The position numbers were made by a program, and so were the translations under genes. A stretch of 52,651 nucleotides of DNA from Chloroflexota bacterium (GTDB lineage: Bacteria; Chloroflexota; Dehalococcoidia; Lucifugimonadales; Lucifugimonadaceae), in the NCBI GenBank assembly GCA_018673955.1, contig JABHBJ010000007.1, positions 1 through 52,651 on the forward strand, given 5' to 3'. The notes beneath the pieces are model-generated. The model was not told where the DNA came from and ran no database searches. It was given only the letters and a program-made list of their open reading frames with translations. Below are positions 1 through 9,826 of the stretch, piece by piece. Position 1 is the stretch's first letter. The number at the start of each line of letters is the position of its first letter.

Positions 1-269
1 CAATTTAGTGATTACCTAAATATCGGAATTCGTAGCGTCCAACGATAACAAGTGTTTACGTTCATGGCTATCTTCGTTTTCTTATTTTTCGAACATTCAC
101 CATCAATGGTTGGCTATTCGCCGATAAAACAACTGCCGATTAAGCATGAAAATATTGTTTCCGTATGTTGACTGACATGTCAGATTCAGATATAAATTCT
201 TGCCACAGATCAACGTCGTCGCTTGACGGCATGTCTGATTTCGCGTCTGACATTTATTCGGAGGTCAAC

Positions 270-2144
270 TTGACATTTACTGAGAGGTGGAGAATTCTCT
301 TCCTCGCCATGCTTTCAATTGCGCTAATTGCGGCAATTGCTTGTGGTGGCGGAGACGATGAAGGCTCTGAGCCTGCAGCTACAACTGCACCTGCTGCACC
401 TGCAGCTACAACTGCACCAGCACCAGACCCAACGGAGGCTCCGGCCGACGATACGCCAGGTACTGTTGCTATTGCAGACATCGCTCGTGACGACACGTTC
501 ATTGGTTACCTAGGTGGTGCCGAAGGTCGTTTCGTAGATCACGAGCTATGGAACCCATACGCTATTGGTGCAAACCACCAATCTGGTCCAAACATCATTT
601 TCGAGCCGCTTGCATTCTTTAGTGCATTCGACGACAAGACGATCCCTTGGCTCGCTGAGAGCTGGGACTGGAACAGCGACTTTACTGAGTTGACGATGAA
701 CCTACGAACCGGTGTTAACTGGTCCGACGGTGAAGAGTTCAACGCAGACGACGTTGTTTACACGTTGAACACTCTTAAGGACCTTAAAGAAGAAGTCCGA
801 TGGGGTAACGACATTGACAATGCAATGAACCGTGCAGAGAAGGTTGATAGCCACACCGTAAAGGTGATCTTGGACCGACCAGACCCACGATTCATGTTCC
901 TTCTTACATACAAGTTCGACATTGGTGTGTACATGGTGCCAGAGCACCACTACAGCAGCCAGGACTGGACTACGTTCAAGGACTATGACCCAGCGCAAGG
1001 CTTCCCATTGACCACAGGTCCTTGGCAAGTTGTCTCAGGTACCCCTGAGCAGAAAATCATCGACCGCCGCGATTCGTGGTGGGGTGAAGGCGTTGCTGAC
1101 CTCGGTCAGTTCAACAAGCTGCCTGGACCAAAACGTGTTATCTATCTGCCAACACCTGACCAGACGGTTCGGTCGCAGGCTTTGATTTCTGACACTGTTG
1201 ACTACTCAGCAATGACCACACCTGCGGTTATTGTCGAGACAATGGGCAAGAACTCTGATCTTGTCACTCACACTGGAACAGACTCTCCTTACGGATATGT
1301 TGACTGGTGGCCGGTATCGATTGGTTTCAACGACTCCGGTAAGTTCGGTCCTTACGACAACAAAGACGTTCGATGGGCATTCAGTTACCTACTTGATAGG
1401 CAAGAACTGAGTGACGTGGCCTACGACGGTGCAGCAGCATTCAATCCGCTGACTATGCCTGGCTACCCGCCATTGAAGAAATACTTTGACTCAGTAGCGG
1501 ATCTACTCGCAGTAATGGACACCACAGAGCACAACCCAGCCAAGGCTGCTGAGTTGCTCGAAGGTGCTGGTTACTCGAAGGATGGCGAAGGCAACTGGGT
1601 TGACGCTCAGGGCAACGGCATCAACTGTGAAATCATCGGCTTCAGCCCGTGGGTGGACCTTGGTCCTATCACAGCTGAGCAGCTTCGACGAGAGGGCATC
1701 AACGCCACTTACTCGCAGCCGCCAGATGCTTCTTCACGAATGGCTGAAGGTAACTTCGAATGTCTGATGTTCGGACACGGCGGATCGGTCCGTGACCCTT
1801 ACTTCACGATGAAGCTTTACCAGTCAGCATCAGTAAACATTCCAGGTGGTCACCAGGTTAACTTCTACCACTGGGAGAATGAACGTTTCGACGAACTTAC
1901 TGACGAAGTCGCTAAGACTCACCCTGATGACCTCGACAAGATGCAGGAACTATGGCACGAAGCCATGGAAATCTGGATCACTGAACTCCCTGACGTTCCT
2001 GTCCTTGAGTTCTACCACCGAATAATCATGAGTGAGAAGCGATGGACTAACTGGCCACTCGGTGGTCAGACCTCTGGTTACGTGAACGAGGCCTCTTGGC
2101 ACCTCACGTGGTCATTGGTTCTGCATGGCCTAACAGCCAAGTAG
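270..2144 (+). CDS. ABC transporter substrate-binding lipoprotein, family 5 (peptide/opine type)
   Basis: Extracytoplasmic solute-binding protein of the SBP_bac_5 (DppA/OppA-like) family, which captures peptides, opines or similar solutes for an ABC importer. A hydrophobic signal segment ends in a lipobox (AAIAC), followed by an Ala/Thr/Pro linker and then the binding domain with the family motif [20 protein letters not shown]. The frame is open from an ATG at 165, but I chose the TTG at 270. It has a GGAGG ribosome site at 260-264, and the protein then begins with a normal positively charged signal peptide, whereas the 165 start would add 35 polar residues before it. The resulting 624 aa is normal for the family. 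No permease or ATPase gene lies within 6 kb downstream, so it appears to be an orphan binding protein. The ligand is unknown. Confidence 0.9.
372..418 (+). repeat. 27-bp-period direct repeat in the lipoprotein linker
   Basis: A 20-base unit beginning cctgcagctaca occurs exactly twice (372-391 and 399-418) with a 27-base period. It encodes the Ala-Ala-Thr-Thr-Ala-Pro linker between the lipobox and the binding domain of the solute-binding protein. In-frame repeats of this kind expand and contract by slippage and only change the length of the tether. Confidence 0.85.
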
Positions 2145-2191
2145 TAGTACTACTCATTTAGTTATTACTACTTGAGATAACAGACGCGATT

Positions 2192-2229
2192 AAGTGCCCC
2201 CGTCAATTTTGACGGGGGCACTTTTTTTT
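2192..2229 (+). terminator. intrinsic terminator of the solute-binding protein gene
   Basis: A near-perfect hairpin (aagtgcccccgtcaa, then its complement) is followed directly by a run of seven or more T. It lies about 50 bases after the stop codon of the binding-protein gene. Confidence 0.92.
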
Positions 2230-2298
2230 ATGCAAGAAAGCCGTTACGATTCGATTATCGCTTGCGGCATGCTTTCGATTCCGATCAGAAAGTTCAAA

Positions 2299-2820
2299 AT
2301 GACTAACTCTCCTCGAATTTCGCTGATTAGCTTTCAAAATTACGCGGCGCTTGTACCAGTACTTTTTGTATTCGCATTAATTCTCATGATCGCCGGATGT
2401 GGCTCTTCAAGTTCTGCCCCCGAGATTTCGAAAGATGGTGTCGTGATTGGTGTGCCGGATGAAGAAGGTGTTCGCCTGATTACGAATCCGGCGTCGGTGT
2501 ATGTGATTGACGATCTGGAGACTGTAGGTTTTAAGAAAAACAAACAGTTTGATGTAGATACCGTTCCGGGCGCTATCGATATTTGGTATGGCTTTTTTCA
2601 ACAGCAAGATATCGAAGTTAGATTCTACGAGTCACATGCAATAGCACTCGATAAGGGTGTAGAGCTCGCTGAAACTGTCATAGCTCGTACGGCAGGACAG
2701 CGGGACCCACTTATTCCTGTGGTGAACTTGTATCCCGCCTACGCAGTCGTTGGTAACACCGTCATGCTGTGTGAGCGGCAATTAGCGACCTGTGAAGCAT
2801 TGATAACAGTACTCCAGTAG
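2299..2820 (+). CDS. small lipoprotein, member 1 of a six-copy local family
   Basis: Predicted secreted lipoprotein of 173 aa, function unknown. The signal segment runs from Met-Thr-Asn to the lipobox MIAGC. The ATG at 2299 gives the best signal peptide; in-frame starts at 2230 and 2269 would add a polar leader, and a GTG at 2194 lies inside the preceding terminator stem. It shares with the minus-strand copies at 3.6-6.0 kb the pattern VYVIDDLE, then a YGF segment, then VRFYESH, then a C-terminal GNTVMLC followed by a second Cys. It is the most divergent copy: the region carrying W-x-E-G-x-K-D-R-R in the others is missing, and the final Cys pair is spaced C-x6-C instead of C-x11-C. It lies on the opposite strand from the other copies. 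I recognise no named domain. Confidence 0.75.
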   Translation: MTNSPRISLISFQNYAALVPVLFVFALILMIAGCGSSSSAPEISKDGVVIGVPDEEGVRLITNPASVYVIDDLETVGFKKNKQFDVDTVPGAIDIWYGFFQQQDIEVRFYESHAIALDKGVELAETVIARTAGQRDPLIPVVNLYPAYAVVGNTVMLCERQLATCEALITVLQ

Positions 2821-2860
2821 TCACCAATGGATTTGAATTGATCGGACCTTTAGCCGCAGA

Positions 2861-2912
2861 GACTATTTGCCCAAGCAAAGGCTAGCGGGTTAGATTCTCG
2901 CCTCCCGCTCCA
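2861..2912 (+). pseudogene. tRNA-Gly-like 3' half (degenerate)
   Basis: The stretch ending gcctcccgctcca reads like the T arm, 3' acceptor strand, discriminator T and CCA of a bacterial tRNA-Gly. A 5-base T stem (gcggg with ctcgc, one G-T pair) can be drawn, with a 5-base variable region and a loop containing CCC before it. It is not functional as drawn: the T loop reads TTAGATT instead of TTCGANN, the base before the putative anticodon is G instead of U, and no matching 5' acceptor strand (gcgggag) is found upstream. Likely a tRNA remnant or an old integration-site fragment. Confidence 0.5.
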
Positions 2913-2988
2913 ACTGAAATTGGATTAAGGCGTTCTCACGGAAATAATGGTGTCGCTACGCTTGCTATAACAAAGAAGATTAGTAGCA

Positions 2989-3420
2989 CTAATAACCAAT
3001 TCCCACTGCCAAGAGTAAAACTTCGTATCGACTCAATGACTGCGTCGAATCTCGACCTTCACACAGTATTATCACGTTACCAACAGCTGCGTAATCGCCG
3101 TATAAGGGAGTCAGACCGTCCCGGGCAAAACCATCCGTCGATTCTTTGTGCCCTCGTTCCACCGTACGTCAACAGAGCGCAGTAGGGCGTCTACTATGGT
3201 TACTTCTCCGCATACTCAATGCCCTTCTCAACTGAACTCACCTGGTCAGAATAAATTCGTAGTTCATACTGGATTGGTTCGCTATCAGAAGGACGTTTTA
3301 ACAAATAACGGGCCGAGCAAGTAAAATCCGACCCGTTTTTATTTAGTGGACAGATACGTTTCCACCGGTTGGAAACGCTGCTTTATATCGTCGTCTTTGA
3401 GGCGCTCCGAATTCGATTAC
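2989..3420 (-). pseudogene. decayed sixth copy of the small-lipoprotein family
   Basis: No long frame is open here, but translating the minus strand in shifting frames recovers the family's blocks in the correct order. They are ERLKDDDIKQRF (about 3395-3360), YELRIYSDQ then VEKGIEYAEK (about 3270-3215), RWNEGTKNRRM (about 3165-3130), and finally YGDYAAVGNVIILCEGRDS, running to a stop at 2989. The closest intact relative is the copy at 4906-5472. Frameshifts and stops (for example right after AEK) separate the blocks, the signal peptide is not recoverable, and the last conserved Cys has become Tyr. This is a dead duplicate of the neighbouring genes. Confidence 0.8.
3307..3340 (+). terminator. 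possible hairpin terminator inside the decayed copy
   Basis: AACGGG pairs with CCCGTT across a 19-base spacer, with a short imperfect inner extension, followed by TTTTTATTT. It could end plus-strand transcription from the lipoprotein gene at 2299, though it lies about 490 bases downstream of that stop. Weak. Confidence 0.35.
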
Positions 3421-3541
3421 CTCAGTGACGGCTCGATGAATCGACATTTCAAATACTGGGAGCTTTATTTCTACAATTTTCATTTGTGCTCTGATTATCT
3501 GAACTGAATCTCTTGGACTGCTGCATTTTGGAAAATCAGAT

Positions 3542-3574
3542 AAAAAAAGCCCGGAAACACGTGGTAACCAGGCT
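3542..3574 (-). terminator. intrinsic terminator of the minus-strand lipoprotein operon
   Basis: Read on the minus strand, AGCCTGG pairs with CCGGGCT (one G-T pair) around a 13-base loop, followed by a run of seven T. It lies about 25 bases after the stop codon of the last lipoprotein gene. Confidence 0.8.
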
Positions 3575-3579
3575 GTTTT

Positions 3580-3597
3580 TGTGTGTGTGTGTGTGTG
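3580..3597. repeat. (TG)9 dinucleotide microsatellite
   Basis: Nine uninterrupted TG units lie between the stop codon of the lipoprotein gene at 3600 and its terminator. Such runs are uncommon in bacteria and are prone to slippage. Here it is in the 3' untranslated part of the operon, not in a frame or promoter. Confidence 0.95.
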
Positions 3598-3599
3598 GG

Positions 3600-4163
3600 C
3601 TACACCGGATCAGTAAGCGTCATAAGATTTTCACAGTTTGTGAATGCTTGTTGGGATTCATCTCCCTCACAGAAAAGAATCATGTTGCCTCGAATCACGT
3701 ATTCAAGATAACGAGCCGAGTATGAACAGCCTGAATGCGGGGTTCCACTTGCTCTGCTGCATTTTTTGCGGTCTTTTTCGCCTTCTTCCCAAAGAACCTC
3801 ATCTCCTATTACCACTGCATCATCGCCAGTTATAGAATCTGCAAAAAGTATTCCCTGCTGAACGGCATCTTCATGAGTTGCGTAGAAGCGGGCTTCGTAG
3901 TCGAGCTTGTTGTAGATGACCTTCCAAGCTTCAAGAGCTCCGGGAAGCTCTTCTACATCGTAATCCTTAAATCCCTTTACGCCGGGGGCATCCTTTAGAT
4001 CATCGATTACATATATACGGTCATTATCGATAATACGAACAACGCCTACTTCGTCGCCGTTCGATGCAGCGTCGGAACCGCAAGCGACTGCAGCCATCGC
4101 TACAAAAATGGCTAAAGCAACAACGATTGGGACATTTCTTATCGTCAAATGATTCAATGGCAT
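3600..4163 (-). CDS. small lipoprotein, family member 2
   Basis: Predicted lipoprotein of 187 aa, function unknown. The N-terminal hydrophobic segment ends in AAVAC. The mature part carries all family blocks: RIYVIDDLKD (about residue 50), DYDVEELPGALEAW, YEARFYATHEDA, LWEEGEKDRKKC, YLEYVIRGNMILFC and a terminal Cys. It has two Cys pairs, C-x10-C in the middle (shared only with the copy at 4167) and C-x11-C near the end, likely disulfides outside the membrane. Only 3 bases separate it from the stop of the upstream gene and its ribosome site is weak, so translation is probably coupled. It is the last gene of a four-gene minus-strand operon. Confidence 0.8.
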   Translation of the reverse strand: MPLNHLTIRNVPIVVALAIFVAMAAVACGSDAASNGDEVGVVRIIDNDRIYVIDDLKDAPGVKGFKDYDVEELPGALEAWKVIYNKLDYEARFYATHEDAVQQGILFADSITGDDAVVIGDEVLWEEGEKDRKKCSRASGTPHSGCSYSARYLEYVIRGNMILFCEGDESQQAFTNCENLMTLTDPV

Positions 4164-4166
4164 GAT

Positions 4167-4745
4167 TTATTGCACTACCAGCATAAGCTCGGAACATGCG
4201 AGATGAGACTCTGCGGTGTCCTTGCCCTGGCACATAAGAATCATGTTTCCGACAACAATGTAGTCAAAGTATTTTGGATTGTCGCATTTGCCTGAGTGGT
4301 GTCCACCATTACCAGCGCACTGTCGCCGGTCTTTGAGGCCCTCGTCCCAGCGCTGTATGTCCTTAAGAATCGAAGCTTCAGCACCGGTGGCTTCGTCTGC
4401 GTAGTCGACTCCTTGCGCCATCGCTGTAGCGTGGTCAGGGTAAAAACGAGCTTCGTATTCTTTGCGCTTGTATGGGTCTGTTCCGTAGAAACCGTAAACG
4501 GCTGCTACTGCTGCATCGAGACCTTCGACATCGTAATCGTCATCAGTTTTAAAGAACGGTGTTTCTTTAATATCGTCCGGTGTGTAGATACGGTCTGTGG
4601 CGTCGATCTTGGCGATTATTTCATCTGATTCCGATCCGACACCATCTCCACTATCGCTCCCGCAAGCTAGTGCTGCAATCGATAATGCTGCGACTGCTAA
4701 AAGCAGCATAAGCAGCCGTGCCCTGCTGCTGTTTGCCTCATTCAT
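4167..4745 (-). CDS. small lipoprotein, family member 3
   Basis: Predicted lipoprotein of 192 aa, function unknown. I chose the ATG at 4745 because GGGAG lies just upstream and the protein then begins MNEANSSRARLL, leading into a hydrophobic stretch and the lipobox AALAC. A longer reading to 4820 has no such site. The family blocks are RIYTPDDIKET, DYDVEGLDAA, YEARFYPDHATA, RWDEGLKDRRQC, YFDYIVVGNMILMC. It shares the middle C-x10-C pair and the His-His-Ser-Gly segment with the copy at 3600, so these two form a subgroup. The charged, Asp-rich head after the Cys is typical of an exposed tether. Confidence 0.8.
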   Translation of the reverse strand: MNEANSSRARLLMLLLAVAALSIAALACGSDSGDGVGSESDEIIAKIDATDRIYTPDDIKETPFFKTDDDYDVEGLDAAVAAVYGFYGTDPYKRKEYEARFYPDHATAMAQGVDYADEATGAEASILKDIQRWDEGLKDRRQCAGNGGHHSGKCDNPKYFDYIVVGNMILMCQGKDTAESHLACSELMLVVQ

Positions 4746-4905
4746 AAAATAGCTCCCTATCGTTATTCGAATCCCACCTGTTGCAATTGATGAAAATAAG
4801 TTCGCTGGCGGATGCTCCAAATATACCTGTTAACAACTCCATAGTCATTCACTCACCTAACTAAAATAGTGAGCGACTACTATCTTCGACTCTCTAAAAA
4901 GATAA

Positions 4906-5472
4906 TTATGCGCCTTGATCTCGAAGTAAATTGACGAAAGGCGCACATTGCTCTAGAGAATGTTCCGAAGTTCGTCCTTCGCAAAGAATTACGATATTAC
5001 CAAGAATTATATAATCGTAGTAACGAGGGTTTTGACTCCCCCTTGATCCGCCTCCGACTATTATTCTACGATCACGTACGCCCTCATCCCACATCGCATC
5101 TTCGGAGTTAAGGGACGCATCTTCGCCAGATGCGTCCTCGGCAAAAGGGGTGCCTTTCTCAACTGCTATTTGATGGCTTGGGTAAATACGAATTTCGTAA
5201 TTGAGCGATCCGAGACCAGGCGGAGTCCAGAAGCCAACGTAAGCTTCCTCAGCACCGTCGAGTCCTTCAATGTCGTAAGTTTTGCCAAGTTTCCATCCGA
5301 CGTTTTTAATATCGTCGACAGTGAGCAGGCGCTCAAAATCTGTCACTTTTACGAGATCTGCCTCGTCAGAATTATCCGATGTATCTGCACCGCAGCCGAC
5401 TAACGTGATCAGCAGGCTGAGTATCGTTATAAGAAATATCAGCGGTAATCTGTTGCAATTCGTTTTATTCAC
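4906..5472 (-). CDS. small lipoprotein, family member 4
   Basis: Predicted lipoprotein of 188 aa, function unknown. The signal segment ends in the lipobox TLVGC. The blocks are ERLLTVDDIKNVGWK, YDIEGLDGAEEAYVGFW, YEIRIYPSHQIAVEKG, MWDEGVRDRRIIVGGG, YYDYIILGNIVILCEG and a final Cys (C-x11-C). The middle Cys pair of the two downstream copies is replaced by a Gly-rich stretch, as in the copy at 5465. Its start overlaps the end of that gene by 8 bases, so the two are probably translated together. A 160-base gap follows before the next gene. The decayed copy at 2989-3420 resembles this member most. Confidence 0.8.
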   Translation of the reverse strand: MNKTNCNRLPLIFLITILSLLITLVGCGADTSDNSDEADLVKVTDFERLLTVDDIKNVGWKLGKTYDIEGLDGAEEAYVGFWTPPGLGSLNYEIRIYPSHQIAVEKGTPFAEDASGEDASLNSEDAMWDEGVRDRRIIVGGGSRGSQNPRYYDYIILGNIVILCEGRTSEHSLEQCAPFVNLLRDQGA

Positions 5473-6043
5473 TTGGCACCAGCGCGTTCGCCATCAAACT
5501 GCATCGTTCAAGTGAAGTTTCAGGCTCAGAACCTTGGCAAAGCATTATGATGTTTCCAAAAATTGCGTAGGCAGCGAATTTCGGTCCGATACCACTTCGA
5601 GCTCCTCCGCCGACACCACCGCCAATGATGGTTCGGCGATCTTTAATGCCTTCCTTGAAAATAGCGTCATCTTCGCTGAGAATTGCATTTTTACCAGTGC
5701 CTTCAAGTGCCATAGGAGTTCCTCGTTCAATTGCTGCCTCATGAGAATCGTAGACCCGAATCTCATAGTCGTATGGTTCTCCTCCACCGATCCTCATAAA
5801 GCCATAGCTAGCTTCTGAGGCACCAGGTAGTTCGGCTGTCGAGTAGTTGTTTAGTTCTTTGTATGGCGTCGCCAGAACATCATCCAGAGTAAAAATCCTG
5901 CCTGGATCACTGATCTTTGGGAATATTTCGTCTTCATTGGCGCCTGATCCGCAACCGGCGATAACAATGGTCGAAATGGTCAGTAGTGCGATAAATAACC
6001 CTAGGTAGTGCACCGAGAGCGTTTCCGTGGTTTTAGATATCAA
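5465..6043 (-). CDS. small lipoprotein, family member 5 (first gene of the operon)
   Basis: Predicted lipoprotein of 192 aa, function unknown. The signal segment ends in VIAGC, followed by a short acidic tether. The blocks are RIFTLDDVLATPYKEL, ELPGASEASYGFM, YEIRVYDSHEAAIERG, IFKEGIKDRRTIIGGG, YAIFGNIIMLCQG and a terminal C-x11-C pair. The middle block has Phe where the other copies have Trp. It heads the minus-strand operon, so the promoter should lie in the 700-base gap above 6043. Confidence 0.8.
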   Translation of the reverse strand: MISKTTETLSVHYLGLFIALLTISTIVIAGCGSGANEDEIFPKISDPGRIFTLDDVLATPYKELNNYSTAELPGASEASYGFMRIGGGEPYDYEIRVYDSHEAAIERGTPMALEGTGKNAILSEDDAIFKEGIKDRRTIIGGGVGGGARSGIGPKFAAYAIFGNIIMLCQGSEPETSLERCSLMANALVPSE

Positions 6044-6760
6044 GTAGTAGGACCTCAGTGATTATGGGCGACCAGCGGATGATACTGGTTTAGATCGAAC
6101 GGTCAATTTGCAGTCGAAGCCATTACCGAGATATCCGGTTACGGGAAAGATAGACAAAATAAGGAATCTCGATAAGTTAAACCGGAGACACGGGAATCCT
6201 TTGGCTCGCCTCGTTGAAACGCTTGATAGTCGTCCCAAAGACACCCTGATTCTCATTCTTTTGCTTTCGAATTCTTAAAACAACGCAGTCAAGAACCTGT
6301 CAATCTTGATCTCAATTAATTGTAAACCCTCTTAGAGTAATTTCTGATCGATCGACTGGTAAACCTTGGTGAAAAGCTAGTAGTGACCACCGTCCTGCCG
6401 CGCTGAATCGACTGGCTCTGGTTGGACACGAGACTGGATGTCCGTCAGTAAATGTAGGCGAGCTTCGACTGGAATCGCTTAGTCGACTGGCTGGTCGAGC
6501 TTGCGCACCGAATAGATATGAATTTAGCCTTTCGACGTTAGGACTATTTTCGGATCGATTATTCCTTTCACATTGAACAATTTATAGTCGTTACAGTCGG
6601 GTATTTCTGTTGCTAGCTTTATTAGTGACACAAGAAACCAAATATTTAGTCGATAAGAATTGAACTCTTGAGACTCCATGGCGTTAGTATTTACGAAATC
6701 GACCTATATTTTGAGTTGATGCGGTCTAACAGTTCGATAACTAACGAGTGGAGTTGAACA
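6044..6760. other. 717-base gene-free gap with four CGACTGG repeats
   Basis: Divergent intergenic region between the lipoprotein operon and the SDR pair. I see no convincing gene. The heptamer CGACTGG occurs at 6353, 6409, 6466 and 6484, with spacings of 56, 57 and 18 bases, and a related gagactgg lies near 6431. The repeats could be binding sites for a regulator of either flank, or chance. No recognisable hairpin terminator or RNA gene was found. Confidence 0.4.
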
Positions 6761-7447
6761 TTGAACGTGCTGATAACCTCGGCTGCTTCTGCAACGGCGC
6801 AAATCATTATTGGTGCACTAGGCGGTATGCATACACTGCGCCTAACCGATCTTCCTGGTAAAACCAGCGGTGACATCATCAAAAACGAGCTTGGGCATGA
6901 GTCGGAAACCGACGAACTTGTAACCGGTATCGATGCGATTGTTAACATCGGATATCAAGGTCAGTCTGGGTCGAATACCCACCTAATGGACTACCATACT
7001 CGTCGAATGTACAACCTACTTCAGGCTGCTTCTGATGCGGGCGTGAAGCGCTACATTAACATCAGCACATTGAAGTTATTTCAGGATCACGAGGAAAATC
7101 TCGTAGTGACTGAAAAATGGCGCAGCGATCCACCGGCAGAAGACATCGAATTGTTAGTCGCACATATGGCCGAATACGTCTGCAAAGAGTTCGCCCGCGA
7201 CAGGCTAATCCAAGTGGTAAACCTTCGACTCGGCTGGCCTTTCATTGGTGATTCGTTGGCTGGATCAGACGATACGGCGGCTATATCTCACGGCATGATA
7301 GGTGAATCGATCACGGCAGTTCTTACGACCGAAGACCTGATTCAGTGGCAGGACATTCACGTTCAGTCACCGGTGGATCATCAGCGATTTATTACGAAGA
7401 CAGCTGCGAGATTACTGCCTGAACTAGCAGGAAGGCTATCATCATGA
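6761..7447 (+). CDS. SDR-fold (NAD-epimerase-like) protein with lost catalytic motifs
   Basis: A 228-aa protein with the overall pattern of an extended short-chain dehydrogenase / NAD-dependent epimerase: a beta strand at the start, IDAIVNIGYQG after the second nucleotide-binding segment, VKRYINISTLKLF, and VVNLRLGWPF. The defining residues are gone. The TGxxGxxG loop reads TSAASATAQ, and no YxxxK pair is present where it should be (VAHMAEYVCKEF). The TTG start at 6761 has GGAG seven bases upstream. Its stop overlaps the start of the next SDR gene (ATGA), so the two proteins are probably made together. It may be a non-catalytic partner; function unknown. Confidence 0.75.
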   Translation: MNVLITSAASATAQIIIGALGGMHTLRLTDLPGKTSGDIIKNELGHESETDELVTGIDAIVNIGYQGQSGSNTHLMDYHTRRMYNLLQAASDAGVKRYINISTLKLFQDHEENLVVTEKWRSDPPAEDIELLVAHMAEYVCKEFARDRLIQVVNLRLGWPFIGDSLAGSDDTAAISHGMIGESITAVLTTEDLIQWQDIHVQSPVDHQRFITKTAARLLPELAGRLSS

Positions 7448-8229
7448 AGATTCTGATTCTTGGTGGAAACGGAATGTTGGGGCCTTGGGCTGTGAAAGCC
7501 ATGCAGGATCGCCACGACATTCTGCTGACGGATATCAACGATCCGTACCCTGAGTACACTGGTAAATTTCAGAAGCTATCGGTCGATGATGTTGATGGAG
7601 TCGTGAAGGCTGCCAAAGGTATGGACATGATCGTGAACCTCTCGGTTTTACGACCACATCGTCAGATTGCATTCGACGTGAATACGATGGGTAACTACGC
7701 CATGATGGTAGCTGCACGTGAGCACCGAATTAAACGAGTCATCACGACAGGTCCCCACTTTCAAATGGTTGGGCAGCAGTACGAAGAGTGGGATTTCGAT
7801 CTCAACCCCGACATGCCCCCAGCACCTGGTACTCGGCTCTACGCACACACGAAGGCGTTAGGGCAGGAGATCTGCCGAGTGTTCAGCGAGCGACACGGTA
7901 TTCAGGTCATCACATTGCTGTACTACAACATGAAGCATTCTTGGAACTTGGGTGGCCCAGAGGCTCCTGTGGTATATCACGAAGACATGGTTCCGTTCTC
8001 GACTGCTTGGCAGGATTGTGGGACTGCGGTTCGGGCAGCAGTTGAAGTGTCTGAAGAACGACTTGCCTCTAAAAACGAGGCATTCTTCATCTTCCCTGAT
8101 CTGCCTCATCGCAAGCACGACAACGAGAAGACACGCCGAGTGCTTGGATGGAGGCCTAGGTATCAAGTGGAACGTCTATGGAACAAGGATTCTCGAAACC
8201 CTGAAAGTCATCTGACCGAAGCATTCTAG
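7444..8229 (+). CDS. NAD(P)-dependent epimerase/dehydratase family protein
   Basis: Extended SDR of 261 aa with an intact dinucleotide loop (LILGGNGMLGPWA, residues 4-16) and a catalytic Tyr-Lys pair in LYAHTKALGQEI. It also has INxSVLRPH and VITTGPHFQ, which occupy the usual third and fourth strands. Members act on nucleotide sugars, sugar acids or similar carbonyl compounds; the substrate here cannot be told. It is coupled by a 4-base overlap to the degenerate SDR upstream, and the unit ends at a strong bidirectional terminator. It is somewhat short for the family (about 300 aa is usual). Confidence 0.82.
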   Translation: MKILILGGNGMLGPWAVKAMQDRHDILLTDINDPYPEYTGKFQKLSVDDVDGVVKAAKGMDMIVNLSVLRPHRQIAFDVNTMGNYAMMVAAREHRIKRVITTGPHFQMVGQQYEEWDFDLNPDMPPAPGTRLYAHTKALGQEICRVFSERHGIQVITLLYYNMKHSWNLGGPEAPVVYHEDMVPFSTAWQDCGTAVRAAVEVSEERLASKNEAFFIFPDLPHRKHDNEKTRRVLGWRPRYQVERLWNKDSRNPESHLTEAF

Positions 8230-8361
8230 AAAGCTCCTACGTCAGATCATTTTCTGGTGGTCAGGGTCGCATGTTGGCCGAGTCGCCGAACCGATTACGG
8301 TTTAATCGTGATTCCTCCACTTCGTCGGGAAGAGGAAATTGCAACCTTCACTCTAGAAAAC

Positions 8362-8399
8362 AAAAAGCCCGGAAGAATATTGGTTCTTCCAGGCTTTTT
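8362..8399. terminator. bidirectional terminator between the SDR pair and pntB
   Basis: AAAAAGCC-C-GGAAGAA, a six-base loop, then TTCTTCC-A-GGCTTTTT. One mismatch sits in an otherwise perfect stem, with an A run on one side and a T run on the other, so it can serve both converging transcripts. Confidence 0.93.
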
Positions 8400-8422
8400 A
8401 TTATGTACGTCGTTATGAGGAG

Positions 8423-9826
8423 CTAGAGGTCTTTCACTTCCGCAGTGATCTTCTCTACTGAATCCTTGGCGTCACCGAACAGCATCTGAGTCTTGTCGAG
8501 GAAGAACAGTTCGTTCTGTACCCCGGCGAATCCAGATGACATTCCACGCTTCATCATGATGACCGACTGAGCGGCATCGACGTTCAGAATGGGCATTCCG
8601 TAGATCGGACTCGACTTGTCGGTTCGTGCCGACGGGTTCGTCACGTCGTTCGCACCGATCACGACAGCAACATCGGTTCGTTGGAACTCACCGTTGATTT
8701 CGTCCAGATCCTTCAGTTCGTCGTAAGGCACGTTAGCTTCAGCGAGCAGCACGTTCATGTGCCCTGGCATACGGCCTGCAACAGGGTGAATGGCGTAGCG
8801 AACACTAATGCCTTTCTCCTTGAGCAAGTCGGCAAGTTCTCGAACCTGGTGTTGAGCCTGAGCAACTGCTAGACCGTAACCAGGAACGAAGATCACCGAC
8901 TGTGCGTACGCCAGCATCATCGCCGCGTCTTCCGGCTGAATTGATGTGACTGGACGTTCGTCTTCGCCGCCCGCGCTAGCTGCACCATCTTCGACACCGA
9001 AGCCACCCAGCATCACGTTCGCTAGTGATCGGTTCATCGCTTTGGTCATGATCCTCGTGAGAATCAGGCCCGATGCACCAACCAGCGAACCAGCGATGAT
9101 TAAGACCGTGTTCCCAAGTACGAAACCTGTCGCTGCTCCAGCGATGCCCGAATACGAGTTCAACAGAGCGATGACGACTGGCATGTCGGCTCCCCCAATT
9201 GGAATCACTACAAGGATTCCTAGGGCAAGAGCGATTGCACCAGCGATCATGAAGGCGGTGAGCGAAGGATCAATCACCAACCAAACGGTCGATGCGATCA
9301 TTCCGATCAATAACGCAACGTTGATTACATTTCGAATCGGCAGGAGAATCGGTCGAGTCGGAACAATGCCTTGAAGCTTGCCGAAAGCGATGAAGCTACC
9401 GGTAAGGGTTACACCACCAACGATTACCGAGGCCATGATCGTAATCGAAACGTCCTCAGCAATGTGGGATCCATCATCGATCAATCGAATAAGCTCCGCA
9501 GCAGCAATGGCAGCTGAGGCGGCTCCGCCGAAACCGTTGAATATTGCCACCAGTTGCGGCATCGATGTCATTGCGACCTTACGGGCTGAGAACGCTCCGA
9601 TCGCCGAACCGACGATGGCACCACCAATAATGAACTCCCAAGAGGCAATATCGTTACCAACTACGGTAGCGACAACTGCAACCAACATCGCTAGAGCCGA
9701 CATTCGGTTACCGTTTCGAGCTGTCGCAGGCGAACCGAGCTGTTTGAGTCCGACAATGAACAGAATGGCAGCGACGATGTACGCAGCGTTTGTAATGTTC
9801 AAGTGGAAAAGTGCTTCGGTGTTCAT
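8423..9826 (-). CDS. pntB: NAD(P) transhydrogenase subunit beta
   Basis: Membrane subunit of the proton-translocating transhydrogenase, which uses the proton gradient to drive NADH + NADP+ to NAD+ + NADPH. The 467-aa length is typical. The first two thirds are hydrophobic helices (domain II); from about residue 300 comes the NADP(H)-binding domain III with GYGLAVAQAQH, GANDVTNPSA and KRGMSSGFAGVQNELFF. It overlaps pntAB by 4 bases. It is the last gene of the operon and ends at the shared terminator. It would supply NADPH beside the pentose-phosphate genes further right. Confidence 0.96.
   Translation of the reverse strand: MNTEALFHLNITNAAYIVAAILFIVGLKQLGSPATARNGNRMSALAMLVAVVATVVGNDIASWEFIIGGAIVGSAIGAFSARKVAMTSMPQLVAIFNGFGGAASAAIAAAELIRLIDDGSHIAEDVSITIMASVIVGGVTLTGSFIAFGKLQGIVPTRPILLPIRNVINVALLIGMIASTVWLVIDPSLTAFMIAGAIALALGILVVIPIGGADMPVVIALLNSYSGIAGAATGFVLGNTVLIIAGSLVGASGLILTRIMTKAMNRSLANVMLGGFGVEDGAASAGGEDERPVTSIQPEDAAMMLAYAQSVIFVPGYGLAVAQAQHQVRELADLLKEKGISVRYAIHPVAGRMPGHMNVLLAEANVPYDELKDLDEINGEFQRTDVAVVIGANDVTNPSARTDKSSPIYGMPILNVDAAQSVIMMKRGMSSGFAGVQNELFFLDKTQMLFGDAKDSVEKITAEVKDL

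What the first reader, a model, noticed from the sequence alone, without database searches (positions are those of the whole stretch)
2299..6043. Tandem array of a small, unrecognised secreted-lipoprotein family
Five intact genes and one relic within 4 kb encode lipoproteins sharing the ordered blocks R-(I/L)-(Y/F/L)-x-x-D-D-(I/L/V), a Y-G-F / A-Y-x-G-F segment, Y-E-x-R-(F/I/V)-Y-x-x-H, (W/F)-x-E-G-x-(K/R)-D-R-(R/K) and G-N-x-(I/V)-x-(L/F/M)-C-x11-C. Four are in one operon with 3-base gaps or overlaps. Two carry an extra C-x10-C pair and two a Gly-rich replacement, so the copies have diversified. I know no named domain with this pattern. Repeated duplication of an exposed lipoprotein suggests a surface role such as ligand capture, adhesion or phage interaction.
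Basis: partly seen in the sequence, partly recalled or inferred. Interest (0 to 1): 0.7.

Follow-up and report, generated by a model that had tools for sequence, protein, structure and literature searches.

The report
SAR202 surface-lipoprotein array, family DUF6810
An ocean bacterium of the SAR202 group carries an old, conserved row of genes for small proteins that are probably anchored on the cell surface; they belong to a listed family of unknown function whose copies its relatives keep in large numbers, have swapped one by one, and have even spliced into a membrane transporter.

Summary
The array is real: four tandem lipoprotein genes (3600-6043, minus strand), a convergent shorter fifth (2299-2820) and a frameshifted relic between. 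It is not unrecognised: all five match Pfam PF20650 (DUF6810), function unknown; two full-text searches found no paper naming it. The host is SAR202, same genus as Ca. Lucifugimonas marina. In genome samples the family occurred in one GTDB family only (36 of 61 genomes; up to 31 matches in 1.3 Mb). AlphaFold2 gives a confident compact domain (pLDDT 96) without a significant PDB match by Foldseek. Array genes fall by position in a tree of the window plus 14 syntenic loci, with dN/dS 0.06-0.21 in the 17 of 30 comparisons where it could be computed: old duplicates under purifying selection. Yet single genes look replaced by alleles of other species (gene D here, gene C in a relative; AU tests). 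With ankyrin repeats the domain also sits in-frame in an FtsX-type permease in 4 genomes; 3 congeners have the empty site. One loop varies most in length and carries an optional cysteine pair (28 of 81). My reading: a disulfide-locked surface recognition module. Ligand unknown; binding untested.

The parts
5465..6043 (-). Gene A, DUF6810 lipoprotein, 192 aa, TTG start, Gly-rich loop type
   Evidence: Pfam PF20650 E 4e-46; lipobox; starred clade 100/99 by position
4906..5472 (-). Gene B, DUF6810 lipoprotein, 188 aa, GTG start, Gly-rich loop type; overlaps A by 8 bp
   Evidence: PF20650 E 3.4e-54; modelled by AlphaFold2, pLDDT 96; starred clade 97/94
4167..4745 (-). Gene C, DUF6810 lipoprotein, 192 aa from the ATG (a TTG at 4820 is also possible), extra C-x10-C pair
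   Evidence: PF20650 E 9.5e-43; lies in a starred group of 19 rows (100/98) with the domain inserted in the permease
3600..4163 (-). Gene D, DUF6810 lipoprotein, 187 aa, extra C-x10-C pair; allele probably of foreign origin
   Evidence: PF20650 E 2e-33; AU test rejects grouping with L039/L040 (p 0.00125)
2299..2820 (+). Gene E, short DUF6810 lipoprotein, 173 aa, convergent with the array
   Evidence: PF20650 E 8.8e-21 in two stretches; conserved short subfamily
2979..3382 (-). Relic of a sixth DUF6810 gene in broken frames, most like L113, L031 and L109
2860..2945 (+). 3' half of a tRNA-Gly(CCC) gene from the anticodon loop on, with some downstream sequence: looks like an integration scar
   Evidence: 43 bp at 86% to C8; matches in 6 of 7 congeners, 7 of 12 fetched places are intact tRNA-Gly(ccc); no ARAGORN call here
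2751..3500 (.). Stretch seen in this lineage only, holding the tRNA scar and the relic
   Evidence: none of the three 250-base bins reaches 121 aligned bases in any of 14 syntenic relatives
6172..6595 (-). Decayed gene for a staphylococcal-nuclease-like lipoprotein that heads the array in relatives
   Evidence: tblastn matches with stop codons

Best explanation
The array makes five paralogous lipoproteins of the DUF6810 family. Each is exported, lipidated at its lipobox cysteine and anchored on the outer face of the cell membrane of a SAR202 bacterium that probably has no peptidoglycan (read from sequence and from a cultured relative; export and lipidation inferred). There each presents one compact alpha/beta domain locked by an invariant strand-to-helix cysteine pair (model; disulfide inferred). 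One loop, about residues 97-111 of the model, differs most in length and carries an optional second cysteine pair; it is the likely specificity loop and the rest is scaffold. I propose that the domain is a recognition module for an extracellular ligand (a dissolved polymer, or a cell-surface or phage component), that each array position keeps its own ligand class (hence old orthologues under purifying selection), and that alleles at single positions are traded between species by homologous recombination. The same module was copied, with ankyrin repeats, into an FtsX-type permease, by family knowledge into a part outside the membrane, which fits a binding role there. Binding, ligand and benefit are inferred, not shown.
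For: Family: PF20650 in 5 of 5 window proteins and in 81 of 81 aligned homologues (these were picked with a profile of window proteins). Lipobox in 223 of 238 distinct ORFs; of the 15 without, 4 are permease inserts and 5 are the long fusion form. Lgt and LspA present in G000 and G211. No peptidoglycan synthesis genes and a layer reminiscent of an S-layer in the cultured relative (PMC10444878, section 8 read). Model pLDDT 96, pTM 0.90. 13 positions at least 97% invariant, among them E54, R56, N120, C125 and C137, against a segment of 11-27 residues with 0 or 2 cysteines (53 and 28 of 81, none with 1). Orthology by position, dN/dS 0.06-0.21 in 17 of 30 pairs, allele replacement. Permease insert: filled in G000, G245, G221 and L110, empty in G231, G211, G239. 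One homologue lies next to VKOR and a DsbA-like gene, a disulfide-forming pathway.
Against: No ligand, no binding test, no significant fold match to any known protein. No shared operon with a transporter: the neighbouring binding-protein gene lies on the other strand from A-D and is followed by a terminator-like hairpin at about 2192-2228. dN/dS is low, so whole genes show no positive selection. Among 6 close pairs the array genes are raised at third codon positions against the flanks quite generally, so part of the divergence may be weak codon constraint rather than exchange. The array is nearly fixed in make-up, unlike a typical receptor repertoire.
Confidence: 0.45

Rival explanations
1. 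Structural envelope proteins: DUF6810 lipoproteins tie the S-layer-like coat to the membrane or organise the envelope of a cell without peptidoglycan. Copies differ because they fit different coat proteins.
For: Many copies per genome and a stable five-gene set; no peptidoglycan synthesis genes and an S-layer-like coat in the cultured relative; purifying selection.
Against: No match in 25 of 61 genomes of the same GTDB family (some of these genomes are incomplete), so not a general need of the envelope there; a copy inside a permease and a variable loop with an optional cysteine pair are not expected of a lattice anchor.
Confidence: 0.25
2. Phage- or grazer-facing surface proteins (receptor, decoy or blocker) whose alleles are exchanged under frequency-dependent selection.
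For: Replacement of single genes by alleles of other species while the tested flanks stay vertical; a relic in a lineage-specific stretch next to a tRNA scar; some copies near tRNA genes.
Against: No relative found in viral contigs, phages or plasmids; no consistent defence-family match (best E 7.9e-4 to a Cas5-like model, in 7 of 81 members at E <= 0.1, not followed up); low dN/dS.
Confidence: 0.15
3. Accessory proteins of the neighbouring oligopeptide-type ABC transporter (its SBP_bac_5 protein lies at 165-2144).
For: A gene of that binding-protein cluster lies within two genes of a DUF6810 gene in 22 of 93 sources compared, and a gene that by eye is a DppB-like permease in 15 (Pfam for the window's binding protein).
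Against: Opposite strand and separate transcription for A-D; the copies elsewhere in the genome lie beside various other genes.
Confidence: 0.08

Closest known systems
Pfam PF20650 DUF6810
   Same: All five proteins score above the curated cut-off; A-D cover nearly the whole profile.
   Different: Nothing essential; gene E is a short form matching in two stretches. Pfam gives no function, and full-text searches for its name and accession found no paper.
Staphylococcal tandem-type lipoproteins (TIGR01742)
   Same: Alike only in layout (recalled): tandem paralogous lipoproteins.
   Different: Not a member: gene B scores 14 bits against a cut-off of 160.45, the other four are not listed.
Staphylococcal nuclease fold (SNase, PF00565), for the gene that heads the array in relatives
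   Same: A profile of 6 open genes hits thermonuclease chains over most of the chain (best E 0.0038).
   Different: Pfam: 1 of 6 proteins, E 0.14, below the cut-off. In the alignment most positions that I recall as catalytic (D21, R35, E43, R87) are not conserved, so probably not an active nuclease.
Class I type III secretion chaperone / YbjN topology, and kinase N-lobe
   Same: Order of elements alpha-beta-beta-beta-alpha-beta-beta-alpha in the short model (the comparison is from memory).
   Different: Foldseek matches are not significant (best E 0.038 to a kinase, TM to query 0.36; AmyR 0.099, Spa15 0.14).

Membership tests
Pfam DUF6810 (PF20650) | Score above the curated cut-off of 25 bits | tested here: met
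   74.7, 115.7, 145.9, 183 and 156.8 bits for E, D, C, B, A: 5 of 5
Pfam DUF6810 (PF20650) | Match over the whole profile | tested here: met
   A 1-139, B 1-140, C 3-136, D 2-138 of 141; E only in two stretches, best 2-69, so met by 4 of 5
Bacterial lipoproteins | Signal peptide with lipobox cysteine, and Lgt and LspA in the genome | tested here: met
   Lipobox pattern in 5 of 5 window genes and 223 of 238 distinct ORFs; PF01790 and PF01252 in G000 and G211
Bacterial lipoproteins | Lipid attached and protein exposed at the surface | not testable with these tools
   Needs labelling or proteomics
Staphylococcal tandem lipoproteins (TIGR01742) | Score above the cut-off of 160.45 bits | tested here: not met
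   14 bits for gene B; not listed for the other four
SNase family (PF00565), head gene of relatives only | Score above Pfam's cut-off of 21 bits | tested here: not met
   13.1 bits in 1 of 6 proteins; profile search of PDB sequences gives weak thermonuclease hits
Any fold of the PDB | Significant Foldseek match of a confident model | tested here: not met
   0 matches at E <= 0.001 for both models; no library of predicted cellular structures, and the second aligner was not on the machine
Ligand-binding surface receptor | Bound ligand shown | not testable with these tools
   Needs binding assays

The most novel reading that the evidence does not exclude
DUF6810 is a new-fold, clade-specific recognition domain that SAR202 bacteria use as a movable part: kept as a set of surface lipoproteins with one variable, optionally disulfide-clamped loop, traded allele by allele between species inside an otherwise vertically inherited array, and copied in-frame with ankyrin repeats into an ABC permease. 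It would be a receptor repertoire of ocean bacteria that enzyme-based surveys of their paralogue expansions have passed over.
Probability: 0.3. Interest if true: 0.75.

Novelty: new member of a known kind. Interest (0 to 1): 0.5.

Why it matters
SAR202 bacteria are widespread in the ocean, and the expansions of gene families reported for them in what I saw are enzymes (PMC6946804, passages; PMC10444878, abstract and section 8). This family, with 14-26 matches per genome in the 8 sampled genomes of the window's genus, has no known function and no solved relative found. Since a cultured strain carries the same array (L043, CP046147.1), its role can be tested directly.

Tried and rejected
Dispersal by a living mobile element. 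Some copies lie beside tRNA genes: in the own genome 4 of 13 loci outside the window within 1 kb (binomial P 0.0006), in G211 3 of 12 (P 0.004). The 1-kb limit was chosen after seeing the data and the two genomes are not independent: the copies at tRNA-Pro and tRNA-Met are orthologous, so those are old. At tRNA-Phe the two genomes hold copies of different subfamilies (L030 long, L164 short), which rather suggests a hotspot. No integrase was looked for, so no living element is claimed.

Fold relatives: two AlphaFold2 models, three Foldseek searches and a PDB profile search (best E 0.76), none significant. Kinase N-lobe hits rejected as generic sheet-plus-helix matches. PHROGs, NCBIfam and PADLOC matches rejected as scattered or weak.

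The 6 Rfam matches at 1-9000 are all below their gathering scores and lie on terminator-like hairpins (my reading). Two long frames were explained away: L153 reads across masked bases, and L154 runs an SNase-like gene and a gene A together.
Full report
What is there. The window is contig C44 of a 2.2-Mb, 103-contig genome, 87% complete. Its relatives are SAR202 Chloroflexota; G211, of the same genus, has the length and the coordinates of Ca. Lucifugimonas marina JH1073, CP046147.1. Five genes at 2299-6043 encode proteins of 173-192 aa with lipoboxes, collinear in alignment. A-D run on the minus strand; A/B overlap by 8 bp, B/C are 160 bases apart, C/D 3 bp. E is convergent with D. Between D and E lie a broken DUF6810 relic and a tRNA scar.

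The family. All five hit Pfam PF20650, DUF6810; so do all 81 members of a wider alignment, which had been picked with a profile of window proteins. Pfam gives no function; full-text searches for 'DUF6810' and 'PF20650' found 0 papers. Of SAR202 papers I saw: PMC10444878 (outline with abstract, section 8, passages), PMC6946804, PMC6306507 and PMC5395668 (passages); the word lipoprotein occurs in none of the four main texts. A search for SAR202 with lipoprotein listed 6 papers, none of which I opened.

Where it occurs. DUF6810 was found in 36 of 61 genomes sampled from the GTDB family, including 8 of 8 of the genus with 14-26 matches each, and with up to 31 matches in a 1.3-Mb genome of another genus. 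In the class sample it was found in 2 of 4 genomes of that family and 0 of 144 others; in the phylum sample in the own genome and in 0 of 200 others, only one of which is of the family. 0 of 14 control genomes had it. A genome-contig scan confirmed 115 of 138 candidate stretches; the 79 loci kept bear Chloroflexi, Chloroflexota, Dehalococcoidia, SAR202 or Lucifugimonas titles. None of 49 candidates in viral contigs was confirmed, and there was no match in phages or plasmids. Other phyla were searched only through these collections.

Fold. AlphaFold2 on gene B with 80 homologues gave pLDDT 96.0 and pTM 0.90; on gene E's short domain with 22 homologues 86.6 and 0.82. Foldseek against the PDB found nothing at E <= 0.001 for either (best E 0.71 and 0.038; TM to query at most 0.33 and 0.43 in the 50 rows shown), nor among viral models (best 1.5). 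A second aligner failed to run and no library of predicted cellular proteins was on hand. So: no known fold found, which is weaker than a new fold shown.

Conserved core and variable loop. Over 81 sequences 13 positions are at least 97% invariant, among them E54, R56, N120, C125 and C137 of the model. The segment between residues 96 and 112 holds 11 to 27 residues and takes the most different lengths of four segments measured, and carries 0 cysteines in 53 and 2 in 28 sequences, never 1. C125 lies in a strand and C137 in the last helix, so the C-x11-C pair could form a strand-to-helix disulfide; the coordinates were not open to me for a distance check.

Age and selection. In a tree of 105 domains (99 distinct; the L. 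marina array is in it twice, as L043 and as G211), the array genes of the window and L039-L052 fall by position: A (100/99), B (97/94) and D (100/99) are starred clades; E is one group without a star (86/92); C lies in a starred group of 19 rows (100/98) that also holds the permease insert and the 390-aa form. L041 and L043 have one extra B copy. dN/dS of window genes against six relatives is 0.06-0.21 in the 17 of 30 pairs where dS could be computed, several of them with dS above 2; in 13 dS was saturated. Protein identity (62-89%) is mostly lower than in flanking genes (78-97%).

Allele replacement. Against its closest relatives L039 and L040 the window is 83-95% identical in most coding flank bins (67-79% in 6001-6750, where the decayed gene lies) but 69-74% inside gene D; L039 falls to 60-76% in gene C where L040 stays at 87-88%. 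Codon-alignment trees keep window, L039 and L040 together for A, B, E and two flanking genes, but AU tests reject this for C (p 3.3e-5) and D (p 0.00125) (the group was chosen after the protein tree). Third-position differences agree: L039-L040 0.64 in C against 0.20-0.30 elsewhere, window-L040 0.60 in D against 0.21-0.28 in flanks. Other array genes are also raised (window-L040 E 0.48, B 0.39), and in further close pairs the array is more diverged than most flanks too, so faster silent change may play a part.

Domain insertion in a permease. C23 encodes a 1496-aa FtsX-type permease with ankyrin repeats and a DUF6810 domain in the middle. Orthologues in G245 and G221 have the same insert; G231, G211 and G239 (80-84% identical over the C-terminal 406 residues) lack it, with open frames of 1160-1182 against 1478-1502 aa. 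Homologues further off are mostly of the short size, so gain is likelier than loss. L110, from another SAR202 assembly and cut at its start by the contig end, has the insert with two DUF6810 domains in a row. The boundary lies between LGSLLPR and KC-D/E-V. The insert's domain falls with array gene C. In G245 another frame joins part of a DUF6810 gene to what by eye is part of a sulfatase.

Head gene. In 6 of 15 loci examined (window plus 14) the array is preceded by an open gene for an SNase-like lipoprotein; in 6, the window among them, it is broken or partial, and 3 gave no match. Homology rests on a profile search that hits thermonucleases (best E 0.0038); Pfam gave 1 weak hit in 6.

Scar. 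Window 2870-2912 matches the 3' half of tRNA-Gly(CCC) from the anticodon loop on; of 12 related places fetched in congeners, 7 are intact tRNA-Gly(ccc), 1 is tRNA-Gly(gcc) and 4 are not called. It lies beside the relic in a stretch that no relative shares at length. It looks like the trace of an element inserted at a tRNA end and suggests how one DUF6810 copy arrived.

Mechanism. Shown by sequence: family, lipobox, conserved core, loop variation, orthology, allele replacement, insertion in a permease. Inferred: export, lipidation, surface exposure, disulfide, binding. I judge a ligand-recognition module likeliest (0.45), an envelope or coat anchor next (0.25), a phage- or grazer-facing protein (0.15), a transporter accessory (0.08).

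Verdict. The finding is real and partly misnamed: not an unrecognised family but a listed family of unknown function. What raises it above routine is its clade-bound expansion, a confident model without a known fold match, exchange of single alleles and reuse inside a permease.

Noticed in passing
L029:1416-5906 (G000:C23), L148, L149, L110 versus L150, L151, L152: In-frame insertion of ankyrin repeats plus DUF6810 (two copies in L110) into an FtsX-type permease; empty sites in three congeners.
   Followed up: yes
window 2860-2945: 3' half of tRNA-Gly(CCC) as a scar; similar stretches, intact or not, in 6 of 7 congeners and at two places of contig C8.
   Followed up: partly
window 6172-6595; L040, L041, L043, L045, L047, L049: SNase-like lipoprotein gene heading the array, open in six relatives, decayed here; residues recalled as catalytic are mostly not conserved.
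   Followed up: partly
L064, L066, L075, L096: These Chloroflexota loci gave 10-12 DUF6810 domain rows each within 6.3-12.6 kb (one gene may give two rows), larger arrays than this one.
   Followed up: no
L028:5503-6675 (G000:C79) and relatives L111, L114, L115, L117: A form of about 390 aa with an unknown cysteine-bearing N-terminal part, followed by another unknown lipoprotein; in four of these loci a gene that by eye is a leucyl-tRNA synthetase lies nearby.
   Followed up: no
L167 (G245:C38): N-terminal part of a DUF6810 lipoprotein in one frame with what by eye is the C-terminal part of a sulfatase.
   Followed up: no
L026 (G000:C96): DUF6810 gene next to VKOR and a DsbA-like gene; a VKOR-like neighbour also in L091, L104 and L106.
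   Followed up: partly
L030 (G000:C86) and L164 (G211): DUF6810 copies of different subfamilies at tRNA-Phe(gaa) in two species, as if the site were a hotspot.
   Followed up: no
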